The notes beneath the pieces were generated by a model. That model was not told the DNA's origin. It saw only the letters and a list, made by a program, of their open reading frames with translations, and searched no databases. Source: Watersipora subatra (taxonomy: Eukaryota; Bryozoa; Gymnolaemata; Cheilostomatida; Watersiporidae). From it: a stretch of 64,000 nucleotides of DNA. The position numbers were made by a program, and so were the translations under genes. The stretch lies in the NCBI RefSeq assembly GCF_963576615.1, contig NC_088708.1:31069191-31133190 (forward strand). The letters run 5' to 3'. Positions within the stretch are counted from its first letter, which is position 1, and each line of letters starts with the position of its first letter. Shown here piece by piece: positions 17,156 to 48,880 of the stretch.

Positions 17156-20100
17156 TTATCCCGGTTCCTCTTCCTCATTTCGATTACCTCTAAGACCACG
17201 TTTAAGATTAAGTAATTTCAGGAGTTGTGCACCCCGCCTGTAGTAGTCATAGTAAGAAGAAACATTATAACTGTGGTCAGTTTTGTCAGAGAATGGGGGT
17301 GGGTATGACACCATGTCCTCTATGTAGTTCTCCTCTTTGCAAAGTTTTCCTGAGCGCTTTAGCTGACGACATCTTCGTTTTCTTCGCTCCTTTTGCCGCG
17401 TATGACGCCTTTTAGTGACATCCCCTATGTAACCAACAGTAGCACAAATCATGTATAAACAGTCACTTCTAGTGAGTGGCATGAGCGTTTTGCAATCATC
17501 AGATTTGTGGTAAAACTAAATTAGGATTTATCTTTATGGATCTATAGTTCTTACTATAATGTATATACTCATGAGTTGCTGAGTGTGAATTTGTACAGAT
17601 GCAATAGTTTCCGCAACTAGAGTAAAGAATCTGTTTCCAAATTAAAAGAGATACCAAATGTGGGCGCGCTACCCTTTTCATTTGTAGAATAATTAAACAA
17701 GTTTTGATAAAAATGGTCTAACTTGATGCACAACTAATCCACACTTCTATTCCTGCGTTTGCAAGGTCCAATAACAATAATAACCACTTTTTATTTACTA
17801 TTACATTAAATTAGTTTTTTTAACAAAAAATTTAAAAAACATTTTTCAAATAATTTTATATAATGCATTTGCTTAAATTTTACAGCATTGTTAAGAAGCT
17901 ATCTTAGGTTTAGAAGCTTCTGAATGATGTAAACAAATTATTGTGTATTATTATATGAACTTTCGCACACATTTTCTATAACAAGCTTACTGTTTCTAGG
18001 TAGGTTCTCACACAAAAATGACGTTGAAGATAATACAAGATTTGCTATATTTCAATGTACAGTGAAACACGGATAACTCAAACTTCAAGAGACCGAGCAA
18101 AAGTGTTCGAGTTATTAGAGCGTTCAAGTTATCAGGACAGTCATAAGTGCACGTATTTATCAGTAGATACATGTACATATACAAACTATATATCAATCGA
18201 AAGCATAGATTGCTTGTTGCAAGTTAAAGGGTCTCTTGTGTGAAGTTTTAAATATTTTTAATCAGAAAGTATAGATATTTTTTTATCACTTGAGATTTGT
18301 TTGTTGATTTAGGTGATGTGACTGCCAGGACGTTCTCACATTAAAATTGGCAAAACTTGATCGCGATTAAAACGCTCAGAAAAAATACATACGTATTTTT
18401 CTACTGAGCGTTTTAACCAAGATCAATTTTGCAGTAAGTCAGTTATTACAAAATTGCTTTACTATTAAAAACCCATTATCAATTTTGCCGATATTACTTT
18501 AAAGTTATCCAAATTTTACCTCGCTTTTCTTGCATTCGGAGGGCTTATCGCTAAGCGGATGTTTGGTAAAATTTGATTTTTGTAAACCTTTAGAAAAGTA
18601 ATTAATAAAAATATTTGCTGATGTTGGTAATAACGAGGCCTAAGAACTACTAAAAGTCGATGTTTATCTCTATGGCTTGGAATAAAGTGATATTCTAAAG
18701 CGATAGTAACAAACGTCTCGGTAGCCGTTTGGCAAAAAACTGTTCGAGTTAACGGAGTTTCGGTCGAGTTATCTACAGCCATTTATTATTGCGTGGGAAC
18801 GGACCAAGCAAATCCATTCGAGTTAACCATGTGTTCGATATATCCGAGGGCGATTTATCCGAGTTTCACTGTATTTGCTATACAGCCATTAATACTTTAT
18901 ACTCCTGCATACTTTCAAGACCTATGAACAACAGCGACAGGAAACAGCTTCTTCAAGCCAACATGAACTTTCTGTGCCAGAGTGGACAACTAATTTAGTA
19001 AGATTTGTTAGCATTTTTCAATGTTTCTCATCTATTTTAATGAGAGCTCAGAGGATAACTGTTTAAAATGTGTGATTCAAAACATTTGGAATGAACTATT
19101 TTCATAGATCACCAAAATTTAAAAAAGATGAGATTATCATTTTAGAGGAGAGTGAGCGTAACCTTTAATAATAATCATAATAATGTATTTAGAGCTCAGT
19201 TTTTAAAAAGCAACAAAAAGGAGAAACAAAGGTTTCTTTCTATTTTAGTCTACTAGGAAACCACTGTGATTGTTTACTGCTTCTTTAAACATCTATGTTT
19301 GAATGAGTGCAAAGCTGAGACGAGCCTGGATTGGTTAGTTTATATAATAATAAAAATACAGTGGAAAGGCAACTCCAAAATTCTCCTCTAAACCAATTTA
19401 TGAGATGCAGGAATACACTATGCCAACTACACAAATGCTGGGTGTAATTCCAAGCTATTGTGACATCTGCAATTGTAGCTGATAGGAGCTTGATAAACTC
19501 GACTTAAAAAAAATCACAACAAAAATTTTTTGTGGAGTCGAGGATAAGGATATGACATACATGCAAATCATGTACCATAATCACCCTGTCTAATTATTTT
19601 ACTTGACCACTAAATTCTGGTCTATTGAGCAAAAAACTGACAGTAGACATGACAGTAAAAAAACTCAGACAGGTGAGAGAGTGAGAACCGGCAGGCACAA
19701 CGGAAATGGTGCATCACTGAAGATCAGTGACACACTAATACTGTCTTCCTTCTCCACAAGCGCAACAAAGCATATTCATGCCCTGCGCGCTGGATACTAC
19801 TTGCAATCTTTTGCATCTTTCTAAGGTGCAACTACATTAAATTTTATGTTAGATATTTTCACGGGGTGCATTTAAAACCATTGATACTATGAAAGTCGAA
19901 ATCGAAGTAACCCAAGGACTCCTTGTGTATAGAAACATCATGAGCATCTTATATACTTTTTATGATTGGCTAACCTACAGAAGGCGTGTAGCGCCATAAG
20001 TATTTATATGGGAGGAAAATAATAAGCAACCACAGACAGCATGCATTGAGATACACTATTTAAAAAAAATATAGATATAGATACATCTATTGATGATGAC

Positions 20101-23100
20101 AGTGGCCCACAGATGCCTTTGACACCTATCAAAGTTTTATTCTCCAACCCAAACTTTTTAACAGACAACTTGTCTGCCAGATACCTGAAGCGGGTTGTAC
20201 AGAGTTGCAATATCGTTCCTCCAGTTTACACCTTTGAGTCTCTGTGATCTGTGGACAGGCATTACCGTTAGGAGAAGGATGCTGTAAGACAACCCGAGAT
20301 CTTGTTCTGTTTCCCCATTTATAACCACAGGCCTTTCCCTCCCTCAAGCAGTCCGACCATGAAGACCATGACTCAACCAAGCAGTCAACTGTAATAGACG
20401 GTAGACAAGGATAGGAATCAACTGTAATAGACGGTAGACAAAGATAGGAGTCAACTGTAATAGACGGTAGACAAAGATAGGAGTCAACTGTAATAGACGG
20501 TAGACAAGGATAGGAGTCAACTGTAATAGACGGTAGACAAGGATAGGATTCAACTGTAATAGACGGTAGACAAAGATAGGAGTCAACTGTAATAGACGGT
20601 AGACAAGGATAGGAGTCAACTGTAATAGACGGTAGACAAGGATAGGATTCAACTGTAATAGACGGTAGACAAAGATAGGAGTCAACTGTAATAGACGGTA
20701 GACAAAGATAGGAGTCAACTGTAATAGACGGTAGACAAGGATAGGAGTCAACTGTAATAGACGGTAAACAAGGATAGGAGTCAACTGTAATAGACGGTAG
20801 ACAAAGATAGGAGTCAACTGCAATAGACGGTAGACAAGGATAGGAGTCAACTGTAATAGACGGTAGACAAGGATAGGAGTCAACTGTAATAGACGGTAGA
20901 CAAGGATAGGAGTCAACTGTAATAGATGGTAGACAAAGATAGGAGTCAACTGTAATAGACGGTAGACAAGGATAGGATGCATTCAACCCTCTGACTTGAC
21001 ACTTTACAGCTGACTATGTGGAGCATCACCATGACAACACTTTACAGCTGACTATGTGGAGCATCACCGTGACAACACTTTACAGCTGACTATGTGGAGC
21101 ATCACCGTGACAACACTTTACAGCTGACTATGTGGAGCATCACCGTTGCAAGTCTTCATTCAGACTGAATTTACAAATATCTTAATTGAGCAATAACTCA
21201 GAAGAATGGCCTATCGAAAAAATTTTTAATAACAAAATTAGCTGACATCAGACCTTGGAAAGATTAGCTCTGTTAGAAGGTTGACTTATAATCTACAATG
21301 GTATGCGACTCAGTAAAAATACTCGACTGAGTAATCGTGAGGCTATAACAGAAAATCTAACCTGTTCAAGCAGCTCCGCTACCCACCCACGATAAAAGTT
21401 ACTTATCTTGTGCTGAGATGAACCAAAATCGCTGATTACAAAGCAATTGGGATTACAACTAGTTAAAATCTTACAGGTAATTCAAAGACTGGATTCTCAC
21501 CTGACCCGATGACTCTGTTTATTCCTAACCATACCATTTCACCTATAAAACTGATTCTGACAAGTCTATAGGGTATTTTTACTCCCCCTGCACATGAGGG
21601 ATATGCATAAGGTATGTGAATTACAATCGCATCAACACAATTGTAGAATTACAGTAGTTTTTGTGATGATTGGGTACAAAATAACACGGTTGAAAATGCC
21701 TCAGTGACAGTGAGTACACGTGTCTGTCTTACTAAAGACTAGCCTGAGATCTTGCGTATGCTAAGATAACTAATTGCTTACTTGATCAGCCTGAAATCAG
21801 CCTTATATTTAAGATGCTATTTAGAATTTAGGCTACCAATTAATACCTAGCTTAACCTAGCAATTAATAGCTAGACACGCAGTCAAAGTTAGTCAGCTGC
21901 CAAAGGAGTTTAACTAATTAATGTGTATATATATATATTAATTCAACTATTATATATATTATTATTCAACTAGTATATATATATATATACTAGTTGAATG
22001 TCTGGCGTTGCACGGATAATAAAAAAAGGTTTTTACATAAAATTTTTTATTCTCAATCAACATTTACTATTCTAACATTTAAATGAAGGTATTTGTTTAT
22101 TTCTGTGTGTGTCTGGCCAATGCATAATCCAAATATTGGAAAGCTCGAGGCATAGGTAAAACAGATTGTTGAAAAACATTTACTTCTTATGCTACAAATT
22201 CGTTCCAGATTTGAAACAGCTTCTAAACAGTAACAGGCAATGTAGTTTCTTCACCAACAAATCTTAGTAACTTAAGCTAGTAACTTAAACTGAAATTTTA
22301 ATATTTACTATGATAAGAGCTGTGTTTGTCGGAAGCCAGCTAAGAGCGTTAGGAAAAAAGATTGCACCTCGCCTTGAACCCGAAGATTCGGATGCGCGGA
22401 TGTAAAGCCAAACGCACTACCACTAAACCAATAGCTTTGGAATACTTGTGCATATGATCATTACACATGATCTATCATGGCGCACTACACTGCAAGAATG
22501 TGTATTTTAACCAATCGCTATATACTGGACATACGAAGGACGACAGACACCTGATTTTATATATAAAGATAATATATATAATACATATATATACAGTCAA
22601 ACATGGACAACTCGAACTTCACGGGACTGAGCGAAAGTGTTCGAATTATAAGAGCGTTAAAGTTATCAGAGCGTTAAAGTTATCAGAGCACTGTCACAAG
22701 TCCATGTATTTATTTATTTATTAGTAGATACATGCACATATACAAACTATAATATAAATCAAAAGCATAAATGGCTTGTTTTAAATTAAATGCTTCTAAT
22801 GCAAAGTTTAAAACTTTTTTATCAAAAAGTAGAGATTTTTCTATTACTTGAGATTGGTTTGTTGTTTGAGGTGATGTTATTGCCAGGACGTTTTGAGATT
22901 GACATTGGCAAAACTTGATCATTGTTGAAATGCTCAAAAGAAAAGACATCTTTTTCTTTTGAGCATTTTACCCTAGATCAATTTAGCCGATTTTTCTTGT
23001 AGTTTATGCAAAGGTTACCTCACTTTTCCTTGCTTCTGAAGGGCGATTGCTAAGCGGATGTTTGGTATAAACCAAATTTCACCAAACCTTTAGAAAAGTC

Positions 23101-26100
23101 GTTGACAAAAATATTTTGCCGATGGTGGTAATAACGACGCCTGTGAATTATGAAAAGTTGAGGTTTACCTCTATGGCTTGTAATAAAGTGATTTTCTAAA
23201 GCGATAACAACCGTTTCGGTAGCCGTTGGGCAAAAAACTGTTCGAGTTAGCAGAGTTGAGGTCGAGTTATCTAAAGCAGTTTATCATTACGTGGGAACGA
23301 ACCAAAGAAACCGTGAGAGTTAACTGTGTGTTCGAGCTATCCAAGGGCGAGTTATCCATGTTTGACTGTATATATTACATATACAGTCAAACATGGATAA
23401 CTCGAACTTCAAGGGACCGAGCAAAAGTGTTCGAATTATCAGAGCATTCAAGTTATCAGAGCACTGTCACAAGTCCTTGTATTTACTTATTTATTAGTAG
23501 ATACATGTACATATGCAAACTATAATATAAATCAAAAGCACAAATGGCTAGTTTCAAATTAAATGCTTCTAATGTAAAGTTTAAAACGTTTTTATCAAAA
23601 AGTATAGAGATTTTTCTATCACTTGAGATTGGTTTGTTGTTTGAGGTGATGTTATTGCCAGGACGTTTTTTTAGATTGACATTGGCAAAACTTGATCGTT
23701 GTTGAAATGCTCAAAAGAAAAGACATCTTTTTCTTTTGAGCGTTTTACCCACGATCAATTTTGCCGACTTTTCTTGAAGTTTATGCAACTTCAAGAAAAA
23801 GTTACCAAAGAAAAATCCCTCACTTTACCTGGGATTCGTTAAGAGCAACACTCCGAGGCAGTTCAATTAAAAGTTTTACGAGGTTTAACGGTACATTGTA
23901 TATCACTCACGCTTTTTGAATGGATACTTATTGAATGTACACACGTATTCTGTGTTTAGGTCAAACGATGAAAAGTTTTTTTTAGCTAAGACAACGTATA
24001 CGTTTAGTAAAAACAATTTTAAGACGTTTTAAACATTCAACATTCCGACGTTGATTCAACACGGATTCAACGTCGGAAAACTTCGTCACGGGCTAGCCGG
24101 GTCACGCACTCAAGGATTTTCGCCACGCACATGCAAAACAACATGCTGTTTTTGTTTTGTATGTGCGTGGCGAAAATCCTTGCGCGCGTGACCCGACAAG
24201 CCCGTGCTATTAATCGTATAGCAGTGTAAATCAAATTTGACCAAACCTTTAGAAAAGTCGTTGACAAAATTATTTTGCCGATGGTGGTAATAACAACGCT
24301 TATGAATTACGAAAATATGAGGTTTACCTCTATGGCTTTGATTAAAGTGATTTTCTAAAGCGATAACAACCGTTTCGGTAGCCGTTAGGCAAAAAAACAG
24401 TTCGAATTAACAGTGTTGAGTTCGAGTTATCTATAGCAATTTATCATTACGTGGGAACGGACCAAAGAAACTGTTCGAATTAACCATGTTTTCGAGCTAT
24501 CCGTGGCCGAGTTATCCATGTTTGACTGTATATGATTTGTTTTGCCATATTACTTTTATGGTCTACCTGCCTTTTTATTTCTACTAACAGAACTTTAATA
24601 TTTCTAAAAAATTTTTGACGAAGTATATCAGAAATTATTTTGCATTTCAAAACAAGTACGGCACATAATCATCCATAGAAACTAAATTAATAAAGTTATA
24701 ATCAATAAAAAGAGGTTTTTAGTGTTACTTCACAATGGAGACCGCTAGTGTAGGCTTGACAGTGTGTAAGATTGGTAGCAGAGTGAGTAGTAGAAATGAG
24801 TGACATAATTCACTCTAACTTACATTTGATATACGGTAGTTCGGATCAACTTAATGTACATAACTTTAGTATTTTTAATAGTTCTTTTACTCAATCTTTA
24901 TCACTTTTTAACTTTACTCACAACATTGTAATGTTTTGAAAGATGTCAGATACCTCATGTTAGCAATCGCTTGTTCCAATTTTACTTCCAGTATTGAAAA
25001 AGTTTCCTGCAGAGGTAATCATAAGTCAAGGTTCGACTGCAGTGCAAAGAGTAATCTCAGTACACTTGCTCATGGTTTATAACAAGGTCACTTTGCTCTA
25101 GATAATACTGTCACTTGAAACAGGTTATAGAACATGACTCCAGCCTTTGTGAGAAGATAACACGAGGGAGCCGATCCTCAGCAATTTATGACGCAACTAA
25201 ATCATCCAGAGCAATATCTGACTTCAAATGCTTCCTGTTCATGGCGGTATTTTCTATAAACTGTATAACTTAGTAATAATAATTACCTTGTTCAAAACAG
25301 TCTCTTCTGTAATGGGAGTGGTACAGGTTGGAAGGGCACTCCAGGATGCAAGTACCTCTATACTCCAGGTATGGCTCCTGACATTTATCGCAGAAGTCTC
25401 TCTGACTGCAGTGAGCGCATCCCATAGGCTCACATTCTATCAATTAATCACAAGTATTAATATAATTTTTTAGTGTCATTGTTCAAACATAGGGTAATAT
25501 TTCTAAACAGGGTGGAAAAAAAACAGCGCTCCTAATGTGCTCTTGCTCAATATTTACATCAAGAGCACTGAGCTCTTGCGGTAAATATTTTTGAAAAGGA
25601 AATATTTCATGGTGTTGTATTAAACACGGGCTGTAGGGTCTACGTTAAACCTATATAACATATATAAATATAGGTGTTTGTTGGTCTGTTATCCGCATGT
25701 CCAGTTATAGCGATAAAGTCATAGGAGCAAAATATCTACTTTGTGCTGGAATTGAACTCAAAAACACCAGTTTTGCGCACATACATGCTAACCATTATAC
25801 CATGCAGCCACCTTGCTCTATTACAGAATAATTGTTTGTTCTAGCAGACTTGAGGATCATGATTGCGTGAGAGATCGCGAAGTAAAAGTTAGAATTACAG
25901 TTAAAGAATTATAAATACAATTATTCCATGCCATGTCAAGCTGGCTGCGTGGTAGTGTGCTTGGCTTCACATCTGTGCTGAATGTACCAGTTCGATTCTT
26001 GTGATGTGCAGTATGTTTTCTTACCGACCAGACGAAAGGACAGACAAGGTTACTAGCTTAGGTTACTCCACTTTATTGGGTAAAGAAACTTAGCCAATGT

Positions 26101-27622
26101 CAACTACATTACCTGCCACTGTTTATAAGCTGTTTTAAATCTGGAACGAATGTGTAGCATAAGAAAAAATGTTTTACAACAATCTGTTTTAGTTATGCCT
26201 CAAGCGTTCAAATATTTTAATTATGCATTGACCGGACACACACAGAAATAAACAAACACCTTCATTTAAAAGTTAGAATGGTTTATTACCAGTGCAATGG
26301 CAGGCATTCAACTAGTAATGAGCCAATTAGAATTTTGCTAAAGGAACTTGATGCATGGATCAGGACTGATTCTGGCAGTATGCCCTTCTTCACAAGAACT
26401 GAGTGGGTCTGGACGTGAAAGAGAACAATGTCGTTGAACAACTGCAATGAGGGCCTCCGGTTAGTTTGGTGTTAACAGTGTTATGAAAGGGTTATGTTAT
26501 AAGACATACAATTATAAAATCTACTTTGGCCAGATATCTTAATAACTGCCCGTGAAAATTTTAAGTGGTCAGAGTGCAATCGGATAAGAGTAGGACCATG
26601 CCTTCACATCTCGTTCTCATAAAGCATTACATACACAGAAAGACTAACTGCTATAAAGTATCAATACATTATTTGTTATCTCCATGGCTTCAATACCTGT
26701 ACACCTGACATGCTCGGGCGCATGTAGGAAGGCTTGCTTGAAATAACCAATCGGACAATCCCGCCGACAGACGCCAATGCGTCGCAAAAAGACCTTTTCC
26801 AGCTGCCAGACAAAGTCTTTAGAACAGGTTAGACAACCATTCCATTTAGAGCATGTGAAACAACCAAGGGGGCACGTTTGAGGAAGGGTCGAGATTTCCA
26901 TTCCACCTGCAAGAAACTGAGAATTTTGTGACATAATAAAACAAAAAATTTTTAATGTTAGCATTCGATCAGTATCAACCAGGCCCTTTACTCTTGGAGG
27001 CCAACACAACTAAGTGGAAATAGTCACGAACAAGAGACATTACTATGAATCAAAATGTCACTGAATGACACTAAAAGGTACACAATGCCGGGTATTGCGA
27101 GCGTTGTTTGTAAAAACAATCGTAGTGCATATCAATTCTAGCTGCACCTGAAGTTATAGTAAAACTGACATTTGGCCTGGTCCCCTGCAAAGTCGATCCA
27201 AGTGTATCCAGGTTGAGCAATCGGTATAATTCATGAAGCCGTCGTCATTCATTCGGACGCCCTAACTAAAAGTGACTCACGTCCAAGATCGTACATCTCA
27301 CACTCTACGGCTAATCAAAAAGATTGATGCGAATCAAGCTATTTATTACTGATGCAGAGAATGACAACTTGCAGATGCATTTAGAAAAGCCTAGATTTCG
27401 CAACGGAAGACACAACTTCCAAAACTTGTGATATACTACTGCAACTAAGACAGAACATACATGTATAATTAAATTTCTTATAAAATACTATAAACTCGAA
27501 ATAATCATCACAAACCAACCTTTCAAGGAGTCCCCAGAAGATAACAGAGTTGGGTCAGGCTGAGAGGAGTGCAATACAGAGATGAACATGGTGAGAGTCA
27601 GATAGTGCAGGACATCAACCAT
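17156..27622 (-). CDS. RSPO: R-spondin, secreted Wnt-signal enhancer (spliced, complete)
   Basis: R-spondins are secreted ligands that bind LGR4/5/6 and the ubiquitin ligases ZNRF3/RNF43, sparing Frizzled receptors. Five exons, minus: 27622-27520, 26906-26697, 25436-25287, 20388-20185, 17424-17156; every join is phase 1/2 and gives 311 residues. Residues 1-19 form a signal peptide (MVDVLHYLTLTMFISVLHSS). FU1 lies in 47-105 (CPLGCFTCSKWNGCLTC, then IGVCRRDCPIGYF). FU2 is in 105-155 (CEPMGCAHCSQRDFCDKCQE, RGTCILECP). TSP1 is in 155-215 (CLVESWSSWSDC, CGYKWGNRTRSR, RCKLEERYC). The tail 222-311 is basic (KRRHTRQKERRKRR), as expected for heparan-sulphate binding. One exon per domain is the usual RSPO gene plan. 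The length is somewhat above vertebrate RSPOs, owing to an extended tail. The 33-bp array before exon 4 may lengthen the protein by alternative acceptors. Confidence 0.95.
18060..18871. mobile_element. TA-flanked MITE, copy 1 (Tc1/mariner-pogo-like)
   Basis: Starts CAGTGAAACACGGATAACTC after TA and ends in the near inverse, ...GAGTTTCACTG, before TA. Length 812 bp, no transposase. An internal inverted pair (AAAACGCTCAGAAAA / TTTTCTACTGAGCGTTTT) occurs near 18370-18415. Lies between the last two RSPO exons. Confidence 0.85.
20389..20977. repeat. 33-bp minisatellite (about 18 units) carrying copies of the RSPO TSP1-exon acceptor
   Basis: Plus-strand unit begins CAACTGTAATAGACGGTAGA and continues CAAGGATAGGAGT. 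On the minus strand each unit contains TACCGTCTATTACAG|TTGACT, the same bases as the real acceptor at 20389/20388. Units differ by one or two bases (AAGG or AAAG, GGAG or GGAT). The frame through the array is open and in phase with the TSP1 exon, giving DSYPCLPSITV repeats. Confidence 0.95.
21001..21144. repeat. 38-bp minisatellite, about four units
   Basis: Units ACTTTACAGCTGACTATGTG plus GAGCATCACCGTGACAAC, nearly identical; adjoins the 33-bp array within the same RSPO intron. Confidence 0.9.
21990..22440 (-). mobile_element. Helitron-like or SINE-like repeat, reverse orientation
   Basis: On the minus strand a tRNA-like segment (22435-22365; TGGTTTAGTGGTAGTGCG, then GGGTTCAAGGCGAGG) is followed by the body shared with 25940-26315 (CGTTCCAGATTTGAAACAGC region inverted, then TTATTTCTGTGTGTGTC region) and the terminus GACATTCAACTAG before T at 21990. 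A second plus-strand CTAG end lies at 21970, facing it. Confidence 0.6.
22594..23368. mobile_element. TA-flanked MITE, copy 2
   Basis: Ends CAGTCAAACATGGACAACTC and inverse GAGTTATCCATGTTTGACTG with TA on both sides. 775 bp; lacks the extra segment found in copies 3 and 4. Only 15 bases separate it from copy 3. Confidence 0.88.
23384..24528. mobile_element. TA-flanked MITE, copy 3 (long form)
   Basis: Same ends as copy 2 (CAGTCAAACATGGATAACTC), 1145 bp. Carries an additional internal segment of about 350 bases (about 23805-24225) that contains the nested 120-bp hairpin at 24087-24206. No transposase frame. Confidence 0.88.
24087..24206. mobile_element. 120-bp hairpin element nested in MITE copy 3
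   Basis: Inverted arms CACGGGCTAGCCGGGTCACG and, at the other end, GTGACCCGACAAGCCCGTG; the middle pairs CGCCACGCACATGCAAAACA with its inverse, so almost the whole element is one stem. A same-length copy is at 51002-51121 inside copy 4. Confidence 0.85.
25665..26315. mobile_element. Helitron-like composite repeat with two tRNA-like segments
   Basis: The left part has a minus-strand tRNA-like head (25811-25743; ATGGTATAATGGTTAGCATG and GAGTTCAATTCCAGC). The right part has a plus-strand head (about 25938-26015; GCTGCGTGGTAGTGTGCTTG and AGTTCGATTCTTG), then the body with CAACTACATTACCTG, and the end GGCATTCAACTAG before T. Lies in the RSPO intron between FU1 and FU2. Confidence 0.55.
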
Positions 27623-28196: not shown

Positions 28197-31100
28197 CTAG
28201 AAGTCTTGGCCAGCCCACTACAAAAAATAAGTTCAATTGATATCAAGAGACCAGCTCCGGTCAATTCATAAAGGGTCTGGTCAACAACCAATTGCTGTGG
28301 TCAATTCATAAAGGGTCTGGTCAACAACCAATTGCTCCGGTCAATTCATAAAGGGTCTGGTCAACAACCAATCCCTCTGGTCAATTCATAAAGGGTCTGG
28401 TCAACAACCAATCCCTCTGGTCAATTCATAAAGTTCTCATACCTGAAACCAGTGAATGTTCATTGACCATGTTAACAATGTTAAAATACTAGTAAGCAGT
28501 TAGCACGAACCTGCTACTGTTACTCATATCAGGGCGGACAAAAATCACATTGATTATTCGTGTTGCATCATAAGAAATATTTATATATCGGGTCATGAAT
28601 TGCACAAATTCGGACCAATGTTTTCAGATGTTTCTATCAATGCATTTGCACGCTCAGAAGATGTATTGTACTTCATAAAAGTGGTGATTCACTTGAAAAA
28701 TAATTGCAAGAGTCTCCATACAATCAGAGAGGTCAGTAAAAAGCCACACTTGATAAAATCCAGTTGATTGTCGCATCAAAAACAAAGCAGGTTCACACAC
28801 TGAACATCATGGCTAACCTATTCTAGTTGATTAAAATTGCTAATTTACAATCTCTATGACTCTTGATTGACATTATTTATATTTAAAGGTTTAGTTACAA
28901 ATTTTTAAGATGTCGGTTGTTACGTTAAAATCCTATCTTTATTATAACAAACTGATATAAATGACCATAGTAGACATTATAGTTCACAATCGGTACCATA
29001 AGCTGTACATCATTCACAGCGCGTCAAATATTTAAATATTACTGTTTATTTATCAAAGGATTTTTTTATTTTCACCTTCATTAAGACTAGCCCAAGACAG
29101 ATTCTTCTAATGGTAATGTATCAAGGAAAGGCCACCGCCATGGAGGTCAAACTAGATATTAATAAAAGTGTAGAGTAATTTATTCAGTATGTTCTTACAC
29201 TGAAAATTTGAGTTACACTGTATCTTAGGAGCGAATCATTATCATAAGCCAAGGACCCCTGTACATGTTCTTACCAGGAAAGATGGGCATTGAAAACTAA
29301 GGACCCCTGTACATGATCTTACCAGGACAGATGGGCATTGCAAATTAAGGACCCCTGTACATGTTCTTACCAGGACAGATGGGCATTGCAAACTAAGGAC
29401 CCCTGTACATGTTCTTACCAGGACAGATGGGCATTGCAAACTAAGGACCCCTGTACATGGTCTTACAAGGACAGATGGGCATTGCAAACTAAGGACCCCT
29501 GTACATGTTCTTACCAGGACAGATGGGCATTGGAAACTAAGGACCCCTGTACATGGTCTTACCAGGACAGATGGGCATTGCAAACTAAGGACCCCTGTAC
29601 ACGTTCTTACCAGGACAGATGGGCATTGCAAACTAAGGACCCCTGTACATGGTCTTACCAGGACAGATGAGCATTGCAAACTAAGGACCCCTGTACATGA
29701 TCTTACCAGGACAGATGGGCATTGCAAACTAAGGACCCCTGTACATGTTCTTACCAGGACAGATGAGCATTGCAAACTAAGGACCCCTGTACATGTTCTT
29801 ACCAGGACAGATGGGCATTGCAAACTAAGGACCCCTGTACATGTTCTTACCAGGACAGATGGGCATTGCAAACTAAGGACCCCTGTACATGATCTTACCA
29901 GGACAGATGGGCATTGCAAACTAAGGACCCCTGTACATGATCTTACCAGGACAGATGGGCATTGCAAACTAAGGACCCCTGTACATGATCTTACCAGGAC
30001 AGATGGGCATTGGAAACTAAGGACCCCTGTACATGGTCTTACCAGGACAGATGGGCATTGCAAACTAAGGACCCCTGTACATGTTCTTACCAGGACAGAT
30101 GGGCATTGGAAACTAAGGACCCCTGTACATGATCTTACCAGGACAGATGGGCATTGGAAACTAAGGACCCCTGTACATGATCTTACCAGGACAGATGGGC
30201 ATTGGAAACTAAGGACCCCTGTACATGATCTTACAAGGACAGATGGGCCGAGGACACTTGTACATGTTCTTACCAGAAAAGATGGGCATTGCGAACTAAT
30301 ACTACAATGGCATAGTGTTGTTACTTTTACTATCTCCTTCATCAACCAGAAATCCAATATCGGGATCGTAGTTACAAATGAAAAATTACATTTGATTGTC
30401 TAAAAAACAGCTCTTAATGAAAGAACAATTATGCACCTTGCTTTTTCTATCTCACATGCACTGCTGGGTCACCTGTGACTTTCCTATTTTGAAGCGAAAG
30501 ATGAGCAGCGGATCAAGAACAATTTAGAGAACAAATTGCCTAGCGTGAAAACTAGTATGTCCCCAAGCATTCCATGTCAAAAATGTAAGACTTATCACAA
30601 GCTGAATACATTATGACTCTCTCAACCTATTGGCAAGCACCGAGTTAAATACCCCTAGAGTCCGAGGTACCAACAAGCTAGAGTATGTTGACCACAAAGC
30701 ATTCACATACTATCTCAGAAGATGTGTATTACTCACCCCATCTCTTTCTCTGGGGGCCAGTTTTTTTTCAAGATTGATTGCGAGCATCTGTGATCTGAAG
30801 GAAAGACCTTTTGTTTTCTCAATGACCTGTTGATAGACTGAGACAGCCTGCGTACCCATCACCACGTGACCCTGTGTACGAACAATCCCTAATCAAATGA
30901 CCGCTCCAGGCCTCTGCTACAGTTTTATATCGGTAAACTATAGTAATCAAATTAAGAGATCAATGACGATATGCACCGACTAAACCAACAATACCCGGCG
31001 GCATTCCTAAAGCAAATCACACACTATAACAATGTGAAGTAAAAATAATAATATATAAAGCAATAAGAATGAGAAAAAGAAACAGCGGAATACGTAAAAC

Positions 31101-34100
31101 CTACGAGTTGAGAGTCAATCTTGGCATCAAGCCTAGCGTTTCGTATCAGGTTTACTATCCATTTCTCAGCATCCTCTGGTGACATGTTAAGCTTATCAGC
31201 AAGCATGCTACAAGAACACCAATGGCAAATGAATGTTTGCAAACAGGAGAGGTAACTTCTTCATTCTGATCTGTTTTGACGGATAAGAGGAAGAGTGAAC
31301 GCAGTCATATTGACATGAGGAAGATCAAGATTAACCTGCAGCTCAAAAAGTCAATGCATTATCAGTAACACGTAACAGTGCCAACTAGAGTTTCAATAAT
31401 ATTTTTGTGTAATTTCGACCAAATACTAGGTATTATCAATATTATCAAAGGTCATTTTAAAAAATGGACACAAAGATACAATATTTGCAAACTATTGGCC
31501 AAAAACAGCTGCAACACTATATGGTCAAATTAAACTTGCATTAAATTAGATAATCTAACTTAAAAATTGACTTCTGAGGATAACTAATTTTGAAAGATAA
31601 CTTTGAAATTTGAAGTTTATTAAAGAGATGAGAAACGAAAGTCGATTGATTTCATCCTATAGCAATCTCTCAAGGACTAATGTGAAACATATAACTATGG
31701 TACAGGCTTTTGTGTAATCCGTTTTGACTTAGCTCCGTATGTATGACAGAGGGAAGTCATGAGGAGGTGAGCTAATCACTATCCTTTTACCTAAAGACCA
31801 AAAGGGTCTAACAGTACTCGGCACGTACCTCTAGTGATAATCTTATTTTTATTGTACCTTCTTCATTATCTCCTATATTTCTAAGCTTATTAAAAACCTG
31901 TTAAGGCGTGGTCACACGAGCACCGAACCGACGTAGGATCGGTTTGGTTTGGAGGCTGGTTCGGTTTGTGGCACATGTCACACGGCCACCGAAGTAACTT
32001 CGCTTCCTAGATACCATACGTATAGAGACATACCTGCCAACTCTCACGCATTGGGCGTGAGACTCACGCAATCACCCCAAAGAAAAAATGAAAATGCGTG
32101 AGATTTTTGCCCCAATTTCCACAATTTTATATATACTATCATTGATACATCAATTGCCCAAAACCAAATCTCACGCATTGCCCCTCTCTTGCGTTGGCAG
32201 GTCTGTATAGAGACAGGACACGGTTTCATTAGTAGTTTTTATGTATTTGAGTTAAATATTTCTATTGTAAACAAAAAACTTTGAGGAACAATTATAAATT
32301 ATAATTACACAACAGATTTATCAGAAGATCGTTCAGCTGTTCAAAATAAATCACTCGATACAAAGATTTTGCCAACCCTTCCCATCAACATAATTATATT
32401 TTTTATTAACATATGAATGTTTTTCTATGCTGAGTACATAACAAACAAAAACAGTCTTTATCATAGTACTGTGGTTTTACATAAATAAATCAGTCAACGA
32501 TACTTCATCAGGATGAATATGACACATTACTTATATTCTACACGAAAGAAAATCACAATTCTCTTACATTTATGCAAAACTTAAGTGCAACATCTTACAT
32601 TTATGCAACACAATCATAAGTCCGGGTGAACCTTGTTGTAAATTGCTTCATGTGGTTTATTTAACGAAATAAAAGTATCGTCCCATTTCTTTTTTAACAT
32701 TACTCACGCGAACGTAAGTAGAAATGTGACGCGTGCTCGCTAGAATTCTAGAATTTTAACCAGCCAATAAGAGCAAGGGTTTGGCACGAAATTTCGAGCA
32801 GGACCGAAAAGGTTCGTTTCGGCCAGAAATGTCCTCGGCCGAACTTTTTAGAGCTGAAAGCGACGTCGTTTTGCGTCATTTAGTTCGGTTCGACGCTCGT
32901 GTGACCACCCCTTTATGATGCATTATAAGCGATGGTCAACATAAGCTAATTTGTTTCCCATCCACTCATTGGCTAGTCTGCAACAATGACAACTGAAACT
33001 TATACATCTATATCTTGACAAAAATGTGGCCTCCTTACGCCACATCCGATCTTGCCTTGAGATTGTTTCGGTCTCCAAAACTGGAGTTTCGTTTTACTAA
33101 CATTGCAATCATTGATAAAAATGAAACATGATTGTGTTGCTATATATTCTAAGTAAATGTAATTTTAAAATGCAGTCAGCTAATCTGTAAGTGACCAAAT
33201 TTAGTTACTACTATATCCCCAATTGATTTTATGATGAATACTGGATGACTATTTGGTTAGAAACATGTGAAGTAAACACATCACCGATTGATGGAAAGCA
33301 TATATAAAGACATGGCAAAACAAGCTCTACGGGTACCAAAATTTGGTAGAAAAATAATGGTGAGTGTACTAAAGTCATAGCCAAGCATAAGTTACAAGAA
33401 AGCCCTAGACTTTCTGGTGACAATGACTCAAGTGTCAAGGCACAAATATATTAACACTATATGCTCCAGTGACATACACACAGGAGATGGTATGCTCTAT
33501 ACACACAGTATCTGATGTTACTCTATACAGATAGTACCTGATGTTACTCTATACACAGAGTACCTGATGTTACTCTACAGTCTACACACTGAGTATCTGA
33601 TGTTACTCTAGACACACAGTATCTGATGTTACTCTATACATACAGTATTTGATGTTACTCTATATACGCAGTATCTGATGTTACTCTATGCATACAGTAT
33701 TTGATGTTACTCTATACATACAGTATTTGATGTTACTCTATACTCTATACACAGAGTACCTGATGTTAATCTAAGACACAGTATCTAATGTTACTCCATA
33801 CACACAGTATCTGATGTTACTCTATACATATAGTACCTGATGCTGATGCATTGGTGAATCCTACAGAATGTCTCAAAAATGAAAAGCCTTGCATTCTCTA
33901 TGAAGTCATCGAGGCAGGCAACAAGAAAGAAGTCATTAGAGAGAACCTGTATATATAGAAAGATATAAATAAACTGATAAACAGTGTGTCTCTTGATGTA
34001 CTTAATTCACCACAGCAATTTATGTCGATTGATCAGTGAACTGCGTGGTGCAAAGTAAATTGAACGCAACTCATGACCGGGATCTCCACTCAATTTCAGA

Positions 34101-37100
34101 ACAGCAACTGTGAGGCTGTTTATCTATACTAGTCATAGAAATGGCTGGAATGCCAACATGATGACCCTTGCATGCATACGTAAATATTAACCAACTATAA
34201 AAAGGAAGGCAAGTATTCGGTTATAAACAAAAAGATAGCTCAGTGGGAAATCCTAAAAGCAATCTTTTAAGGAGGTGCTGTTTGGGTTATAAAGCGGTTT
34301 TGTCAACAGCTGAATGCCATTTTTTTCAAAATCACAAAAAGATGTCTGATTGCTGACAACAATAAACAGAATAATAATGTCCGATTGCTGACAACAATAA
34401 ACAGAATAATAATGTCTGATTGCTGACAACAATAAACAGAATAATGATGCCTGATGACTATGATAGAAAAGCATTGAGCCACAATGCCTAACCTAACAGT
34501 ATGAATAGATCTATATCATGCACACAATTTACTTAAAACGTGATAGTGCCTCGAGTCAAGTAACATTTTCCTAATTAGTAGCTCGTAGATCTGGTAGTTG
34601 GTGAATCTCTGAGACTTCCTTGTAACAGTAGTATAGTGCAGTCTTACGTGAATACTACCCGAGAAAAATGCGCGACAAGCAAGGAATAATTGTAATTTTT
34701 CCAATCATTTTCTGAAAATGCTGCTTTACTGCCACTAGCCATTCATGCCACATTTAAATTCCACTGGTTTGCTCACTTTGCTGGCAATTTTAAGAATTTA
34801 CGATTATTCACAATAGCAAAAGACAGGCTAAGAGATCCATGTACTTACTGTCTCACAATCGCGCAGCTGTTGCTGAGCTCTGTCAAAGTCAAAGTTGACA
34901 TAAAGACACTCCAGAAATTCTGTGATAGGATCCCTGTATGTGTACGCCTCCTACAACGAACATATAAAGTAAATTACAGCCATAAATCTACATAGGAGCG
35001 TAATTCGTTCTAGGACTGAGCTCGTATGTCAATTTACTCGTGTTTCAAGGCAATATTTTTTATACAAAATAACTAAATACAAATTAATTCCGGTACCTTA
35101 CCATGAAAAAACACGTAACAGGATATTATGATGGAAAAATGTGTTTCTAATAACTGTAATTCAGTACCTACGCTAACAAAGTAACAAATATACCTTTAAA
35201 GTTGTTAAAATCTGCAAAAAAATATAACATTACGATGTACACTACTGTAAGTTTTTACCTTCGAGACAGACGTAGAGGCTAACAACTGTCTGATAGAGAC
35301 TTGATAGCAACACGTTCAGCACACTAAACTTTTGTGACGCTACGCAACATAAACTTTGAAATTTACAAGAATTTTACTCACTAAACACATACTTTAAGGC
35401 AAGTTTTAATTTTTTACTAAACTTACTTTAATTTTGTCATCCTAATTTTTTATTATTCGTTTCCGGTTTGATGACTTTTAGCCTCGCGTTACTATAACTT
35501 TTAGCCGACCTTTTAAATTTTTTTCAAACTGATCCAAGGAGGAAGACCGAGCGAAGCTGTTCTCGAAAACGGCCTCTAGCGTACTTGGCCATATAATGGC
35601 CATCAATAACCAGCTCATAAGTAAATATTATTCCTATCTCAAGGAAGAAACTTGCTTGAAATTCTACGCGTATCTCGATTGTCTCATATGTTGGAGCACT
35701 CGTATGTCAAGGTATGACTGTATAGCTATGCCACTCCACTTCATTCTTAGAAGGAAGATGGATGATCTAGCACACAAATGGCAGCAGCTCCGCTGGTTAT
35801 AATGCTTGGAGAGAAGAATGGGAAACAAGTGGTGAAGAACTGATACTTATCGGCAAAAAATTATTTTGTGAAAAATGAAACTTCGATGAATGAAATTCGT
35901 GAAAAGATGTCCGCGATCAAATAAACAAAGCGCTGAGTATATGCAGATCACCTGCTGAATGACCTTGACCAAATCCTTGAGGACCGTTTTTCTGCGCTTG
36001 TTGATGATGACTGCAGTGGTGAGATAGCGTAGGATGTGTGGACAGTTTGTCTGAATTGTATTGAGATACCTAACAAAAACAACACAAAACTGAAGGGAAA
36101 AACATTCACACAAGAAGGTACATCAATTGTAATGAAAAAAAGACAAGATTGGTGTAGAAATCCCGTAGCCAAGTACTAATGTGTAACAGATATGAAAAAC
36201 ACTTGATTTTTGTGTGACCAAAATTACAAATGTTTTGCCATTGATAGAGTTAGTATACATACTTGTTATCATGCTTGCTGTCGACTAGAAACATGTCTAT
36301 AATAAGATCGCCTCCCTTTGGGTGATTAAAAAAGACAAAAAGACTCCAGTGAATAAACCAGGTTCTCTGTTGGAGCGATTGCAAGTCTGAGCTGAAGGGC
36401 TAAAAAAAGAATTGCAGAAAAGTTTAAAATGAAAGAAATGAGTCATGAGTGAAAAGACAATTTATCCTCTGTAATTGTTTGACAGCAACTCCAGTGAGCC
36501 CCATGGAATTACATAATGAAATAACCCACACATTATTATTCTCTGAAATCAAATAATTGAAAGCAAAGTCTATTTTGAGGCCTCTTTAACCTTGTCGCAA
36601 CCTCAGCACTACATATCACAAAGTGTACTAATCTTTGATGACAAACTAATCTTACAGCAAATATCAAAGGTTTTTAAATCAAACAGCAATGAGTTATTTT
36701 CTAATCGTCTAATCAAAGCTCAAAGCCTGGTTTTCCTACAAATCTCAAAGATGAAATGACCAGATATATTTTGCATTTTAATTTTTGGGTCGCTAATACA
36801 GAAGTGTTACAAATTGTTACGGGCAAATTGTACAGCCTACATGTATATAAATGGGTTAAAAGTTACGTATTGTAAAATGGCAGCAACTAGCCAGTACACA
36901 GGGCTTATATTGTAACCTCCAAACTAAATGATTTGAGGTTGTACACGTATGTTGTCGGAGGAAAGCGTGGTTTTTTTCACCAACTCATGTAAAACTATGG
37001 AGATAGAATTTGTCAACCATACTTTACACTAACTGATTTTAATACAATTATATAAATTATACAATATGCTTTAGGTTCATATTCTTTCAGAATGTATTGG

Positions 37101-40100
37101 CTACTATAATACATATTATTTACTATTAAAGTGCACCCTCAGCATAAAATTTTGACTTGTTCCAGAGTTGGTATCAAATGGTGAAAAAATCGTATGTATT
37201 GGTATAGAAACCATAGAAATTGTATAATGCAAACATCCCCTGGTAAAAATCCTCAAAATTTTATGTAAGTGCTGTACATATTAAACATTAGTAACAAAAT
37301 AGTATATTAACCTTGATAACTATAGTTATTTACAGTAACTTTATTATATTTAGTGAATTTATTGGTTATGATCTGCATTAAAATGTAATGTTACAATGTG
37401 CTATGAGCAGCACTTCAAGACAGACGTATGTCTAAAAAAAACTTTGAATTCACTTCAAATAAGTTTAGCTTACTTAACACACACCCGCACACACTTAAAG
37501 CTAAGTTGTAGCTTGTATTTTTTTAACTATATTACTGATTTTCAACTATTTTTACTCAATTCAGTTTTTGTCTTCGCTTTCACTATAACCTTTAACGAAC
37601 CTGTTTAAAACATTTTTCAACCTAAGCCGGCAAGTAAACCCAAACGATGCTGTTTTCGTAATAAAATGGATTTTTGTAAGTTAATGGAAGTTGTCTGACT
37701 ACTAAACATTCTGTATGAAGGGATCGTAACTCCAACTTTGCTACTGGTTTTAAATGGAAAATATTCATGTTTTACACACAAAAATTGCTGAACTGAGAGA
37801 AATCAGACATCATGTACCTTTCAAGCGTTGTAAAAATATTTTCGGCGAACAGCATTTCGGTGTTTTTGTTATTTTACCGTATGTAATAAGTCCACCAGCT
37901 GCCAATTTTGAACTTGGGCAAAAATTTTGTTGAATTCGTATAGTGAAAGATTCGTATGGTGAGGTGAAAAAAATCTATCGGGGTAATCGACTAATCGTAT
38001 CCTGAAAGTGCGCGGTATATGTTATTATAGTTTTGTGCTGGAGTTTTGCATTCAGACTCGACTCACAGATCTGAGAGAAAGAAACTTCCAACAGAGGTGG
38101 TTAAGTGATATTACACTAAATGCTATCCAAGGCAACTTGAATTATGTTCATATTAACAAAATAACATGTATGCATATTTTAATCAAATGAATAATGACAT
38201 CAAGCGTATATCATGAAGCAATAACAAAACATGAAAAGCTAATCTCTAAATTTTCAACTCGTCCACTTAAAATGTTTTTCATTTGATGTGTGCCAGACAT
38301 AAACGTGGAATAAAGTTTCATTTAAAAAAATGCAGGTTATGCTCATGTGATATCTTTTTCAATTTGGATGAATATGTATGTCTTGTTAATGACAAAAATA
38401 TGAATAGAAACCGTGTCAACAATGATAACAGGAAAAGAATAAGCAACTTTTAAGTCTAACAGAATGCATGCATAATCAACTGCAAGCCTAACTCAGGTTA
38501 AGAAATTCAAATAGATCAATTATATATATTGAATATATTATCACAATGTTCACAATAAATATTGTGAACTTTTTGAACAGTGATAACACATTCTAATCCT
38601 TGACAGTTGCCTTTACATAAGATTTGAGTCCTACCGAGCTATCAATAATCTCTTTGAGCTTATTCAGATCCTCCAGAGCCGCATCCCAATTCTGCATGAG
38701 AATCTCAGCTGCTAGTTTCCCCCACAATGCATTATATGCTAGCTTGTCATCATTGGCTGCCTGCGGAAAAATATAAATATGCAAGAATGCAATTCATTAG
38801 TACAAATGATAAAATTATCCAACAATGAGATAATAATAACTACTGTTTTCTCGGTTACAGTGCGTTACCCTTACCCTTTTGCAGTGCGTTACCTGCACCT
38901 TTTTGCTTCCAGAGTGAAACACCCTTTTTGTTCTGCTGGCAGTTCAAACAGCAGAGGGTTATTTGCTTTCATTTCTTATTAGCGCAGACAAAGAAAATAA
39001 GTTTAAAACAAGTCAGGACTGCATAATAATAATAAATACAGTGTTTAATTCGTTCAACAGCTCAAAAATCTATTGATAATCGATCTGGTAATTGCGGATA
39101 GCATTTAAAATGCAATACGAAATACTTTATAAAAATAAATTATGAAACTAAATTATATGGAAACAAAGAAAGTGATAATGAATAAGAGGTGGTTATTGTC
39201 AGCTTTATGTTACAGACAGGCGAACTGAAGTGCAGTCTTAGAAATAGAGGAGACAGAAGGTGCTTAGGTAGAGGCCACAATAGTAATATGGAGCTGGACA
39301 CACTTAGAAATGAAATCTTTTAATTCTAAGCTTGTATATAACTCAGTTTTGATATTTTTCATTGCTACTAACACTCGCACTGGTCTTCATGATTTGAAAA
39401 CTAAAAAGAAAGGTAAGAGACGCTGTTTAACATTAGTCAAGCAACACAATTCATACACACACACATCCAAATATTACATTGTATGGTGATCTAATAATAA
39501 GTTGAGTGTTTCCACTTAGTTTTTTGACAATAAATACATTAAAGGAATTTTCAAAGTGCCAAACTAGAGGCTTTAGTGATGAAAGCTTGGAATTTTGAAG
39601 TCTCGTTGAAAATCACAAAAACCGCTATCATTAATATAAACTATCTTTGTTGCGATTGATTTAAGAAAACTTTGAGAGTTAAAAAAGCTGACCCTCAAAA
39701 GCAATTTATTCGTCAATACCTTTATTTATCACCACAGAGATCAGTAGTTTTTTTAATTTTTCTTATTAAAATCAGACTGATGCCAATTTAACAAATACTA
39801 TCAGACAAGCGAGGAAAAGGGAGGCACATACCACAACTCTAACAAAGTAGAGATATTCTGCAGCTCCTGTGTAGTTGCCACACTCGTACTGGAACTTGGC
39901 ATATTGATACAATGTCTGCAAGCTTTCTGTCGTAAACTACAATTGACAAATTGCTAAAGGAGTTAGGTTGGAGCATTGTGAATACTGTTCAAGTAAAACA
40001 ACCATGAACCTAAGTCTTTCTGCGTGTATCTTTTATTAATATTATTTCTCGACCGACTAAAAGAAATTCAAAAAGTTCAGTGATCATTAGTATAAACCGA

Positions 40101-40910
40101 AATTTGGAACATAAACCAGTTTGGATGGTGATTTGAGCTGATAAAACCATAATAACAGACCAAATATAATAGCCATTTTCATCCGCATAAAAAACTAACA
40201 AGGTGCAAGTATAGCTACTGGTTCGCACATTGTGCTCTTTGGAGAGAGTATCAAACAACTGCCGACCATCCTTTGACTGCTGTATGAGTTCTACTACTTC
40301 TGGCAGCTCCATTATCTTTACAATTGGCTCCGTCATGTCTTCTCTCATCCTCAGCTCTTGTACGACTTCTCGACGCTTGTTAGTGAAAACTACATAGAGA
40401 CAACAGTACAGCTTGACAAAGGTTTAAATATTTTAAGTTTCAAACAGACATTTATAACGAAAAAAACTTGCACAAGCTTTTTGTGAACTAAGAGGCATTA
40501 CATTCTGGCGCTTCATCCGTGTCTGGATGGAGTCTCATATATACTTCTTTGGCAAAGTCAACCATGTTAGTATTACTGAGCAGATCAATCTTTCCTTGCA
40601 TGATGTCCTCTGGGGCATAAATCTGCAATTATTAAGTTACCATGCCATTAGAAGTCACCTGTCGCTGAACTTAAGGGCGAAACAATGAATTAATGTTTCT
40701 TAAGAAAAAAAAACGGAACGAGTGTCAGGTAAAGAAAACAAAAACATATACCTACTGCACGACCTCCTCTAAGTTTAACTTTCCAAGGCTTATTAACATT
40801 TACAGTAAGTATAACCTTACATCTTTTTCAGACAGGAACTCCAACAATGGAAAGACTAAATGTCGATCCAAATACTGTCCCATTGTGGAAGTCAAATCCC
40901 ATTCAGCCAT
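28197..40910 (-). CDS. EIF3E: Eukaryotic translation initiation factor 3 subunit E (spliced, complete)
   Basis: PCI-domain subunit (Int-6) of the eIF3 complex, which loads mRNA on the 40S ribosome. Twelve exons, minus: 40910-40821, 40622-40502, 40389-40229, 39936-39832, 38760-38635, 36399-36263, 36069-35952, 34950-34849, 33946-33837, 31207-31105, 30871-30737, 28217-28197. All joins keep phase; 442 residues against 445 in human. Diagnostic stretches are [16 protein letters not shown] (N terminus), [78 protein letters not shown] and [14 protein letters not shown] (PCI winged helix and end). The last exon codes only WAGQDF and stop, matching the short conserved C-terminal exon. The weak donor at 40229 (AAT|GTGCG) is the least standard site. 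The gene is intron-heavy; several introns hold repeats. Confidence 0.97.
28258..28434. repeat. 40-bp minisatellite just upstream of the last EIF3E exon
   Basis: Units of TCAATTCATAAAGGGTCTGG plus TCAACAACCAATTGCTCCGG start at 28261, 28301, 28341, 28381 and (partial) 28421. On the gene strand it ends about 40 bases before the acceptor at 28218, in the branch-point zone. Confidence 0.9.
29245..30290. repeat. 48-bp minisatellite, about 21 units, in the last EIF3E intron
   Basis: Unit starts AAGGACCCCTGTACATGTTC and continues TTACCAGGACAGATGGGCATTGCAAACT with few variants. Because 48 is a multiple of three, both strands give long open frames (371 codons minus, 110 plus); these are artefacts. On the gene strand each unit contains CCTG|GTAAGA, a good 5' splice site match, followed 10 bases later by TGTACAG|G. 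Confidence 0.95.
31904..32912. mobile_element. PIF/Harbinger-like MITE, about 1 kb, in an EIF3E intron
   Basis: Ends AGGCGTGGTCACACGAGC and, inverted, AGGGGTGGTCACACGAGC, flanked by TTA on both sides (31901-31903, 32913-32915). TTA duplications are characteristic of PIF/Harbinger. Subterminal inverted stretches (ACCGAACCGA / TTCGGTTCGA) extend the similarity. No transposase seen; hosts a nested element. Confidence 0.8.
32031..32205. mobile_element. 175-bp MITE nested in the Harbinger-like element
   Basis: Starts TACCTGCCAACTCTCACGCA, ends GCGTTGGCAGGTCTG; the ten bases TATAGAGACA occur directly before and after. Internal TCTCACGCATTG motifs are also inverted. The 10-bp duplication would fit a Mutator-like or similar family, but the family is not certain. 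Confidence 0.75.
33480..33845. repeat. About 27-bp minisatellite copied from an EIF3E 5' splice site
   Basis: Units GATGTTACTCTATACACACA plus GTATCT repeat about 13 times. On the gene strand each reads AACATCAG followed by (A/G)TACT. The exon ending at 33837 ends GCATCAG|GTACTATATG, and the first unit begins there. Three further units keep CAG|GTAC (plus-strand GTACCTG at 33534, 33560 and 33756); most others read CAGATAC and have lost GT. Confidence 0.85.
34330..34455. repeat. 35-bp minisatellite, about three units
   Basis: TGCTGACAACAATAAACAGA plus ATAATAATGTCTGAT in tandem within an EIF3E intron. Confidence 0.85.
34975..35725. mobile_element. Possible degenerate DNA element in an EIF3E intron
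   Basis: GAGCTCGTATGTCAATTTAC near the left and GCACTCGTATGTCAAGGTAT near the right look like related end motifs. The part at 35390-35570 is similar to 37490-37670 in a neighbouring intron (shared ACTATAACTTTTAGCCGACC-like stretch). No target duplication established. Confidence 0.35.
36400..38634. other. EIF3E intron between exons 5 and 6
   Basis: AT-rich. Apart from the diverged repeat near 37490-37670 I see no gene, RNA or clear element. Confidence 0.4.

Positions 40911-48814: not shown

Positions 48815-48880
<66 letters not shown>

What the first reader, a model, noticed from the sequence alone, without database searches (positions are those of the whole stretch)
20185..20977. R-spondin exon preceded by about 18 in-frame copies of its own 3' splice site
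The 33-bp minisatellite repeats TACCGTCTATTACAG|TTGACT, identical to the acceptor of the TSP1 exon. The unit is 11 codons, has no stop and is in phase with the exon (the split codon G|TT followed by GAC works at every copy). Choosing an upstream acceptor would therefore insert n copies of DSYPCLPSITV, each with one cysteine, between FU2 and TSP1. This could be a hypervariable, splice-tunable spacer in a Wnt-pathway ligand, or a set of decoy acceptors that slows splicing.
Basis: partly seen in the sequence, partly recalled or inferred. Interest (0 to 1): 0.8.

Follow-up and report, generated by a model that had tools for sequence, protein, structure and literature searches.

The report
Minisatellite copying an R-spondin splice site
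In an unidentified animal, a short piece of DNA at the edge of an exon of the Wnt-signalling gene R-spondin has been copied about 18 times, so the gene offers 18 near-identical in-frame splice sites; the same kind of repeat is known from lancelets, where it is reported not to disturb normal splicing.

Summary
On the minus strand, a 33-bp minisatellite (20383-20977) crosses the intron/exon boundary of the R-spondin TSP1 exon and repeats its 3' splice site 18 times (17 extra copies plus the authentic site at 20388). Spacing is exactly 33 nt, AG is intact in 18 of 18, and the frame is open and in phase with the FU2 donor. Fifteen of 18 copies also have a branch-point-like motif at -30. By its acceptor sequence the authentic site does not stand out.

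Given an array across the boundary, being in phase and stop-free has about a 16% chance. Variation among copies shows no sign of coding or splice-site selection. A scan of 39 splice boundaries in three genes found one more case: a 26-bp array repeating the EIF3E exon-9 donor, where 9 of 12 extra copies have lost GT. Two of 39 is no more than random placement predicts.

This is the structure called a "mirage" in amphioxus, reported there not to disturb regular splicing. Best reading: a largely passive mirage, with 20388 as the main acceptor and possible low-level in-frame isoforms. No RNA or relatives could be examined; the species is unknown.

The parts
20383..20977 (-). 33-bp minisatellite, 18 copies, each with pyrimidine-rich tract, AG and 6 exon-start bases; 15 of 18 acceptors have a yTnAy branch-point-like motif with its A at -30 (14 TTGAC, and TTGAT before the authentic site)
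20185..20388 (-). R-spondin TSP1 exon (authentic acceptor AG at 20389-20390, donor TTCAG|GTATCT), phase 1 at both ends; its first 6 bases belong to the array
20389..25286 (-). FU2-TSP1 intron, 4898 nt, phase 1 (4337 nt if the first array copy were used)
25287..25436 (-). R-spondin FU2 exon
   Evidence: Pfam Furin-like_2; splice sites
26697..26906 (-). R-spondin FU1 exon
   Evidence: Pfam Furin-like_2; splice sites
17156..17424 (-). R-spondin last coding exon (basic C-terminal region) to the stop codon
   Evidence: sequence, translation; no Pfam match
20999..21146 (-). separate 38-bp array, 3.9 copies, 21 bp upstream of the 33-bp array; its copy nearest the 33-bp array holds the TAG stop that closes the open frame
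33495..33842 (-). second boundary-crossing array in the window: 26-bp repeat of the EIF3E exon-9 donor (authentic CATCAG|GTACTA, first intron base 33836); 3 of 12 extra copies keep GT

Best explanation
This is a 'mirage'-type minisatellite: repeated tandem duplication of the end of an intron together with the start of the next exon. A 33-bp stretch (27 intron bases plus 6 exon bases of the TSP1 exon of R-spondin) was duplicated to 18 copies. Because it straddles the boundary, each copy carries an acceptor: a C/U-rich tract without any AG, then TT[A/G]CAG. In 15 of 18 the exon start of the preceding copy (TTGAC or TTGAT) sits at -30, where it could serve as branch point. Most mRNA probably uses the last copy at 20388, because only that copy is followed at once by the real exon body and its exon-definition signals. 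Occasional use of an upstream copy would add whole 11-residue units (V-DSYPCLPSIT, one cysteine each) between FU2 and TSP1 without a frameshift or stop. Shown here: the structure, the phase, and the near-equality of the copies as acceptors. Inferred: branch-point use, predominant use of 20388, low-level isoforms, and a mainly neutral origin.
For: Eighteen copies, exact 33-nt spacing, AG in 18 of 18. With an approximate matrix recalled from memory, 15 of 18 copies score 2.68, the authentic site included, the others 1.86, 2.45 and 3.24; 2.68 is the 97th percentile of 3618 minus-strand AGs. The acceptors therefore show little local preference. A yTnAy motif with its A at -30 is present before 15 of 18. 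The RNA of 20340-20977 folds less than its shuffles (z +5.5; 20 of 20 shuffles fold at least as well), so tracts may be accessible. The 6 other scanned boundaries of the same gene, and 37 of 39 scanned in three genes, have no 30-nt copy of 75% or more within 800 nt. The second positive boundary (EIF3E exon-9 donor) shows that the process is not specific to R-spondin. In amphioxus, the 3' end of a globin intron with the 5' part of exon 2 is tandemly duplicated (BflGb6, 6 and 3 units in two haplotypes), and Adh3, TnC and PGBD5 have boundary repeats, said not to interfere with regular splicing (passages). In designed human reporter libraries two consensus tandem 3' splice sites showed no order preference (passages), so some use of upstream copies is plausible.
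Against: No transcript was examined, so use of 20388 is assumed from precedent. The same library result gives no reason why the downstream one of equal acceptors should win; if the copies compete equally, multiple isoforms could be the norm. The tested pairs (2-59 nt apart, two sites) do not match 18 sites. Three of 18 acceptors (20949, 20619, 20520) lack a yTnAy motif in the 45 nt before them, and the authentic one has TTGAT where most copies have TTGAC, so the modules are not fully equal. That all 18 AGs are intact while 9 of 12 extra EIF3E donor copies are dead could be read as retention, but the EIF3E array is more diverged (80% against 96% matches) and copies are not independent.
Confidence: 0.68

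Rival explanations
1. Splice-tunable, hypervariable spacer: alternative use of the 18 acceptors inserts 0-17 units of DSYPCLPSITV between FU2 and TSP1, giving functional isoforms, with allele length adding population variation.
For: All copies are in phase and stop-free; AG intact in 18 of 18; acceptor scores nearly equal; two consensus tandem acceptors show no order preference in human reporter libraries.
Against: Chance of in-phase and stop-free is about 0.16. The 6 distinct variants are 3 synonymous and 3 non-synonymous, with no purifying signal at this sample size. Each unit adds one cysteine to a disulphide-rich secreted ligand (inference: a folding burden). Amphioxus mirages are reported to splice normally. 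[quoted passage not shown]
Confidence: 0.1
2. Decoy acceptors: the upstream copies sequester U2AF/U2 and slow or weaken splicing of this intron, lowering R-spondin output in proportion to copy number.
For: 17 extra acceptors with tract and AG, in RNA that folds less than shuffles; 9 of 12 extra donor copies in the neighbouring EIF3E array are inactivated, as expected if working decoys are costly.
Against: No kinetic or expression data. The EIF3E inactivation can be few mutations spread by array turnover. In R-spondin no AG is lost, although with so few changes this has a 44% chance without selection.
Confidence: 0.1
3. The array is constitutively exonic: the exon starts at or above 20949 and all units are translated as a repeat domain.
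For: The frame is open through the whole array to 21013.
Against: The acceptor next to the TSP1 domain has the same score as the first copy, which also lacks a yTnAy motif in its 45 upstream nt. R-spondin-2 of the PDB aligns with FU2 joined to TSP1 without such an insert (I built the query without it). No coding signature.
Confidence: 0.06
4. Assembly artefact: the copy number, or the array itself, is wrong.
For: Tandem arrays can be mis-assembled; the authors on amphioxus BflGb6 say that its draft-genome version appears aberrantly assembled.
Against: Copies carry scattered variants rather than being perfect copies, and the window has many other arrays. Reads were not available.
Confidence: 0.04

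Closest known systems
Amphioxus 'mirage' minisatellites (Adh3, TnC, globins BflGb6 and BflGb9; boundary repeats of PGBD5)
   Same: Minisatellite-like tandem repeats that span an exon-intron boundary, many units carrying the splice signal; BflGb6 repeats the 3' end of an intron plus the 5' part of the exon, as here; both donor and acceptor types exist, as in this window (passages).
   Different: Here 18 units of 33 bp, against 6 or 3 units of 150-160 bp in BflGb6; AG is in every copy; the unit is a multiple of 3, in phase and stop-free. Species unknown.
Internal tandem repeats of human genes in segmental duplications
   Same: Minisatellites (on average 30-bp units, 4 copies) that change exon and intron limits; [quoted passage not shown]
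   Different: Found in recent primate duplicates, half in coding sequence; not described in the passages seen as arrays of whole acceptors.
NAGNAG and other short tandem acceptors
   Same: In-frame choice between neighbouring acceptors changes protein length without frameshift.
   Different: In that study 3, 6 or 9 nt apart; here 33 nt apart, 18 sites, most with their own branch-point-like motif.
R-spondin (RSPO1-4)
   Same: Two furin-like repeats, TSP1, basic tail. The TSP1 exon ends in phase 1; published human RSPO2 introns at c.94 and c.616 are also phase 1 by my arithmetic.
   Different: None seen that bears on membership; signal-peptide exon not located.

Membership tests
Mirage minisatellite | Tandem repeat that spans an exon-intron boundary | tested here: met
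   Array 20383-20977 includes the first 6 exon bases 20383-20388
Mirage minisatellite | Copies carry the splice signal | tested here: met
   AG in 18 of 18
Mirage minisatellite | Unit length within the reported range (10-72 bp in Adh3, 150-160 bp in globins) | tested here: met
   33 bp; range
Mirage minisatellite | Length instability between haplotypes or cells | not testable with these tools
   One sequence, no reads; no whole genome held
Mirage minisatellite | Regular splicing is not disturbed | not testable with these tools
   No RNA data
R-spondin | Two furin-like repeats | tested here: met
   Furin-like_2 at 40.8 and 29.9 bits, cut-off 28
R-spondin | TSP1 domain of the spondin type | tested here: met
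   TSP1_spondin E 9.1e-10 but 39.1 bits, just under the cut-off of 41; FU2+TSP1 matches R-spondin-2 of the PDB over both domains, E 1.4e-21
R-spondin | Basic C-terminal region | tested here: met
   ...KRRHTRQKERRKRRCRQLKRSGK... by reading; no Pfam match
R-spondin | Signal peptide | not tested
   First coding exon not located
Regulated alternative 3' splice sites | More than one junction in transcripts | not testable with these tools
   No RNA data

The most novel reading that the evidence does not exclude
A Wnt-pathway ligand whose FU2-TSP1 spacer is set by choice among 18 nearly equal in-frame acceptors, so that isoform length varies between tissues and, through array-length polymorphism, between individuals.
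Probability: 0.09. Interest if true: 0.75.

Novelty: new member of a known kind. Interest (0 to 1): 0.4.

Why it matters
It is a natural experiment in acceptor choice: 18 splice sites with almost the same tract and AG, differing mainly in position and in what follows, and in a few cases in the branch-point-like motif. RNA reads from this one junction would show directly whether the spliceosome favours the first, the last or many of them. Two boundary-crossing arrays in one 64-kb window suggest that mirages may be frequent in minisatellite-rich animal genomes. The contrast between an in-frame array with all AGs intact and an out-of-frame array with most GTs dead is a testable hint of selection on decoy sites.

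Tried and rejected
Coding selection on the array: 6 distinct variants among 18 copies, 3 synonymous and 3 non-synonymous. No signal, too few for a test.

Selection to keep AG: no change at the 2 AG positions among 13 differences has a 44% chance without selection. The Fisher value of 2.2e-5 for 3 of 12 GT against 17 of 17 AG is not used as evidence: copies are not independent and the arrays differ in divergence.

In-frame openness as a mark of function: for the seven arrays that are at least 100 bp long with a period divisible by 3 (overlapping rows counted once), 12 of 42 frames are open over the full length (one search had left out one of the seven and gave 9 of 36).

A complete branch point-tract-AG module in every copy: not borne out. 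One search looked at one copy; over all 18 found the yTnAy motif before 15.

RNA structure as selector of one copy: the array folds less than shuffles; the fold gave no reason to single out the last copy.

Related sequences: a 21-mer of the unit had 0 exact matches in viral contigs. The other collections open to me are bacterial, archaeal, phage, plasmid or E. coli, so no orthologue comparison was made; the one genome-contig scan was not used.

Species identification was not achieved. Amphioxus was considered because of the mirages. The window has 36.5% GC; my recollection that amphioxus is near 41% is not from a call, so nothing is concluded.

Literature: 10 searches of the held library, several with capped listings (20 of 595, 30 of 42, 15 of 56). 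Passages were seen in eight papers (with 27, 24, 26, 29, 32, 44, 48); no paper was read whole, and the other listed papers were seen as listings only. In the passages, boundary-spanning minisatellites appear in the two amphioxus papers and boundary repeats in the human segmental-duplication study; the DDX3Y passages concern start sites in a minisatellite, and the RSPO evolution paper holds no word beginning 'exon' or 'intron'. The original Adh3 mirage paper is not held and is known here only through papers that cite it. That no R-spondin case is in print is not claimed beyond these searches.

Full report
OBSERVATION. The finding is correct in its facts. TRF reports 18.0 copies of a 33-bp unit at 20383-20977 with 96% matches and no indels. 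On the minus strand the unit is CCTATCCTTGTCTACCGTCTATTACAG|TTGACT. Eighteen copies of the acceptor are spaced exactly 33 nt, from 20949 to 20388; nine of 18 units equal the consensus and the rest carry one or two of six distinct single-base variants. The array runs 6 bases into the exon.

GENE. FU1 (26906-26697), FU2 (25436-25287), TSP1 (20388-20185) and a basic last exon (from 17424) join into one frame ending at a stop. Pfam gives Furin-like_2 for the two FU exons above its cut-off and TSP1_spondin at E 9.1e-10, 2 bits under its cut-off. FU2 joined to TSP1 matches R-spondin-2 of the PDB at E 1.4e-21 across both domains; I built that query without the array, and it aligns with a gap of only two residues at the join. 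The signal-peptide exon was not located. The published human RSPO2 intron positions c.94 and c.616 are also phase 1 (passages; phase is my arithmetic). The position of the human FU2-TSP1 intron was not checked.

SPLICE MODULE. With an approximate, recalled 3' splice-site matrix, 15 of 18 copies score 2.68, including the authentic site; the others score 1.86, 2.45 and 3.24. The value 2.68 lies near the 97th percentile of 3618 AGs on the minus strand. Among 251 AGs of the intron, array copies fill 18 of the top 26 ranks; four non-array AGs also outrank the authentic site. A yTnAy branch-point-like motif with its A at -30 precedes 15 of 18 acceptors: TTGAC for 14, TTGAT for the authentic one. The copies at 20949, 20619 and 20520 have none in the 45 nt before them. 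In all 18 the only AG in the last 29 nt is the acceptor itself. The RNA of the array is less structured than its shuffles (20 of 20).

IS IT MORE THAN CHANCE? Given an array across a boundary, every unit must contain the splice site, so 18 copies are one event, not 18. A random 33-nt unit of this composition is stop-free in a given phase in 47% of trials; with one third for a length divisible by three this is about 0.16. Arrays with TRF score 50 or more cover 10.5% of the window (35 merged arrays). I scanned 39 splice boundaries (19 acceptors, 20 donors) of R-spondin, EIF3E and CERT1. Two of 39 have ungapped 30-nt copies of 75% or more within 800 nt: the R-spondin TSP1 acceptor (16 places) and the EIF3E exon-9 donor (8 places). 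The other 37 have none, and their best matches do not significantly exceed shuffles (smallest p 0.095). The same two are the only ones of 39 that lie inside TRF arrays, where about 4 would be expected by random placement. Boundary-crossing arrays are therefore not enriched.

THE SECOND CASE. The EIF3E array (33495-33842, 26 bp) repeats CATCAG|GTACT. Of 13 sites, the authentic one and 3 of 12 extra copies keep GT; nine have AT. Reading on from exon 9 meets stops. The in-frame R-spondin array keeps all AGs. This fits selection against harmful decoys, but with two arrays of different divergence it is only a hint.

MECHANISM. The most likely account is a mirage minisatellite formed by repeated duplication of the boundary, mostly neutral. 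The last acceptor is used by default because the real exon follows it, and rare upstream choices add whole 11-residue units. The default is inferred from amphioxus, where mirage structures are said not to interfere with regular splicing (passages). Reporter work finding no order preference between two consensus acceptors (passages) warns that mixed use is possible. Each inserted unit carries one cysteine, which I judge a burden for a disulphide-rich ligand (inference).

COMPARISON AND VERDICT. It works like, and meets the sequence features of, the amphioxus mirages; instability and normal splicing could not be tested. Differences are the high copy number, AG in every copy, and in-phase open units. 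I file it as a new member of a known kind. The bold reading of a splice-tunable Wnt-ligand spacer is not excluded but has little support. The locus deserves an RNA check because it is a clean test of choice among many nearly equal acceptors.

Noticed in passing
33495-33842: 26-bp array repeating the EIF3E exon-9 donor, a second mirage in the window; 9 of 12 extra donor copies have lost GT.
   Followed up: yes
30736-40910 and 17156-26906: EIF3E and R-spondin lie next to each other on the same strand; RSPO2 and EIF3E are also neighbours in human (recalled), so this may be an old linkage.
   Followed up: partly
about 43500-62570: Exons of CERT1 (ceramide transfer protein) on the plus strand, running towards the window end.
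   Followed up: partly
29251-30248 and 49496-50160: Long 48-bp and 33-bp arrays with long open frames; their Pfam matches (YabP; LEA_4, SecE and others) look like artefacts of repetitive translation.
   Followed up: partly
51806-52213 and 54755-55222: Two arrays of the same 17-bp unit (TATTTATATTAGTGATA) on either side of frames that look transposase-like by eye (52602-54046); no Pfam match for 53540-54046, the rest not searched.
   Followed up: no
20999-21146: A separate 38-bp array (99% matches) lies 21 bp upstream of the splice-site array.
   Followed up: no
1-64000: The window is rich in tandem arrays: 35 merged arrays of TRF score 50 or more, 10.5% of the sequence.
   Followed up: partly
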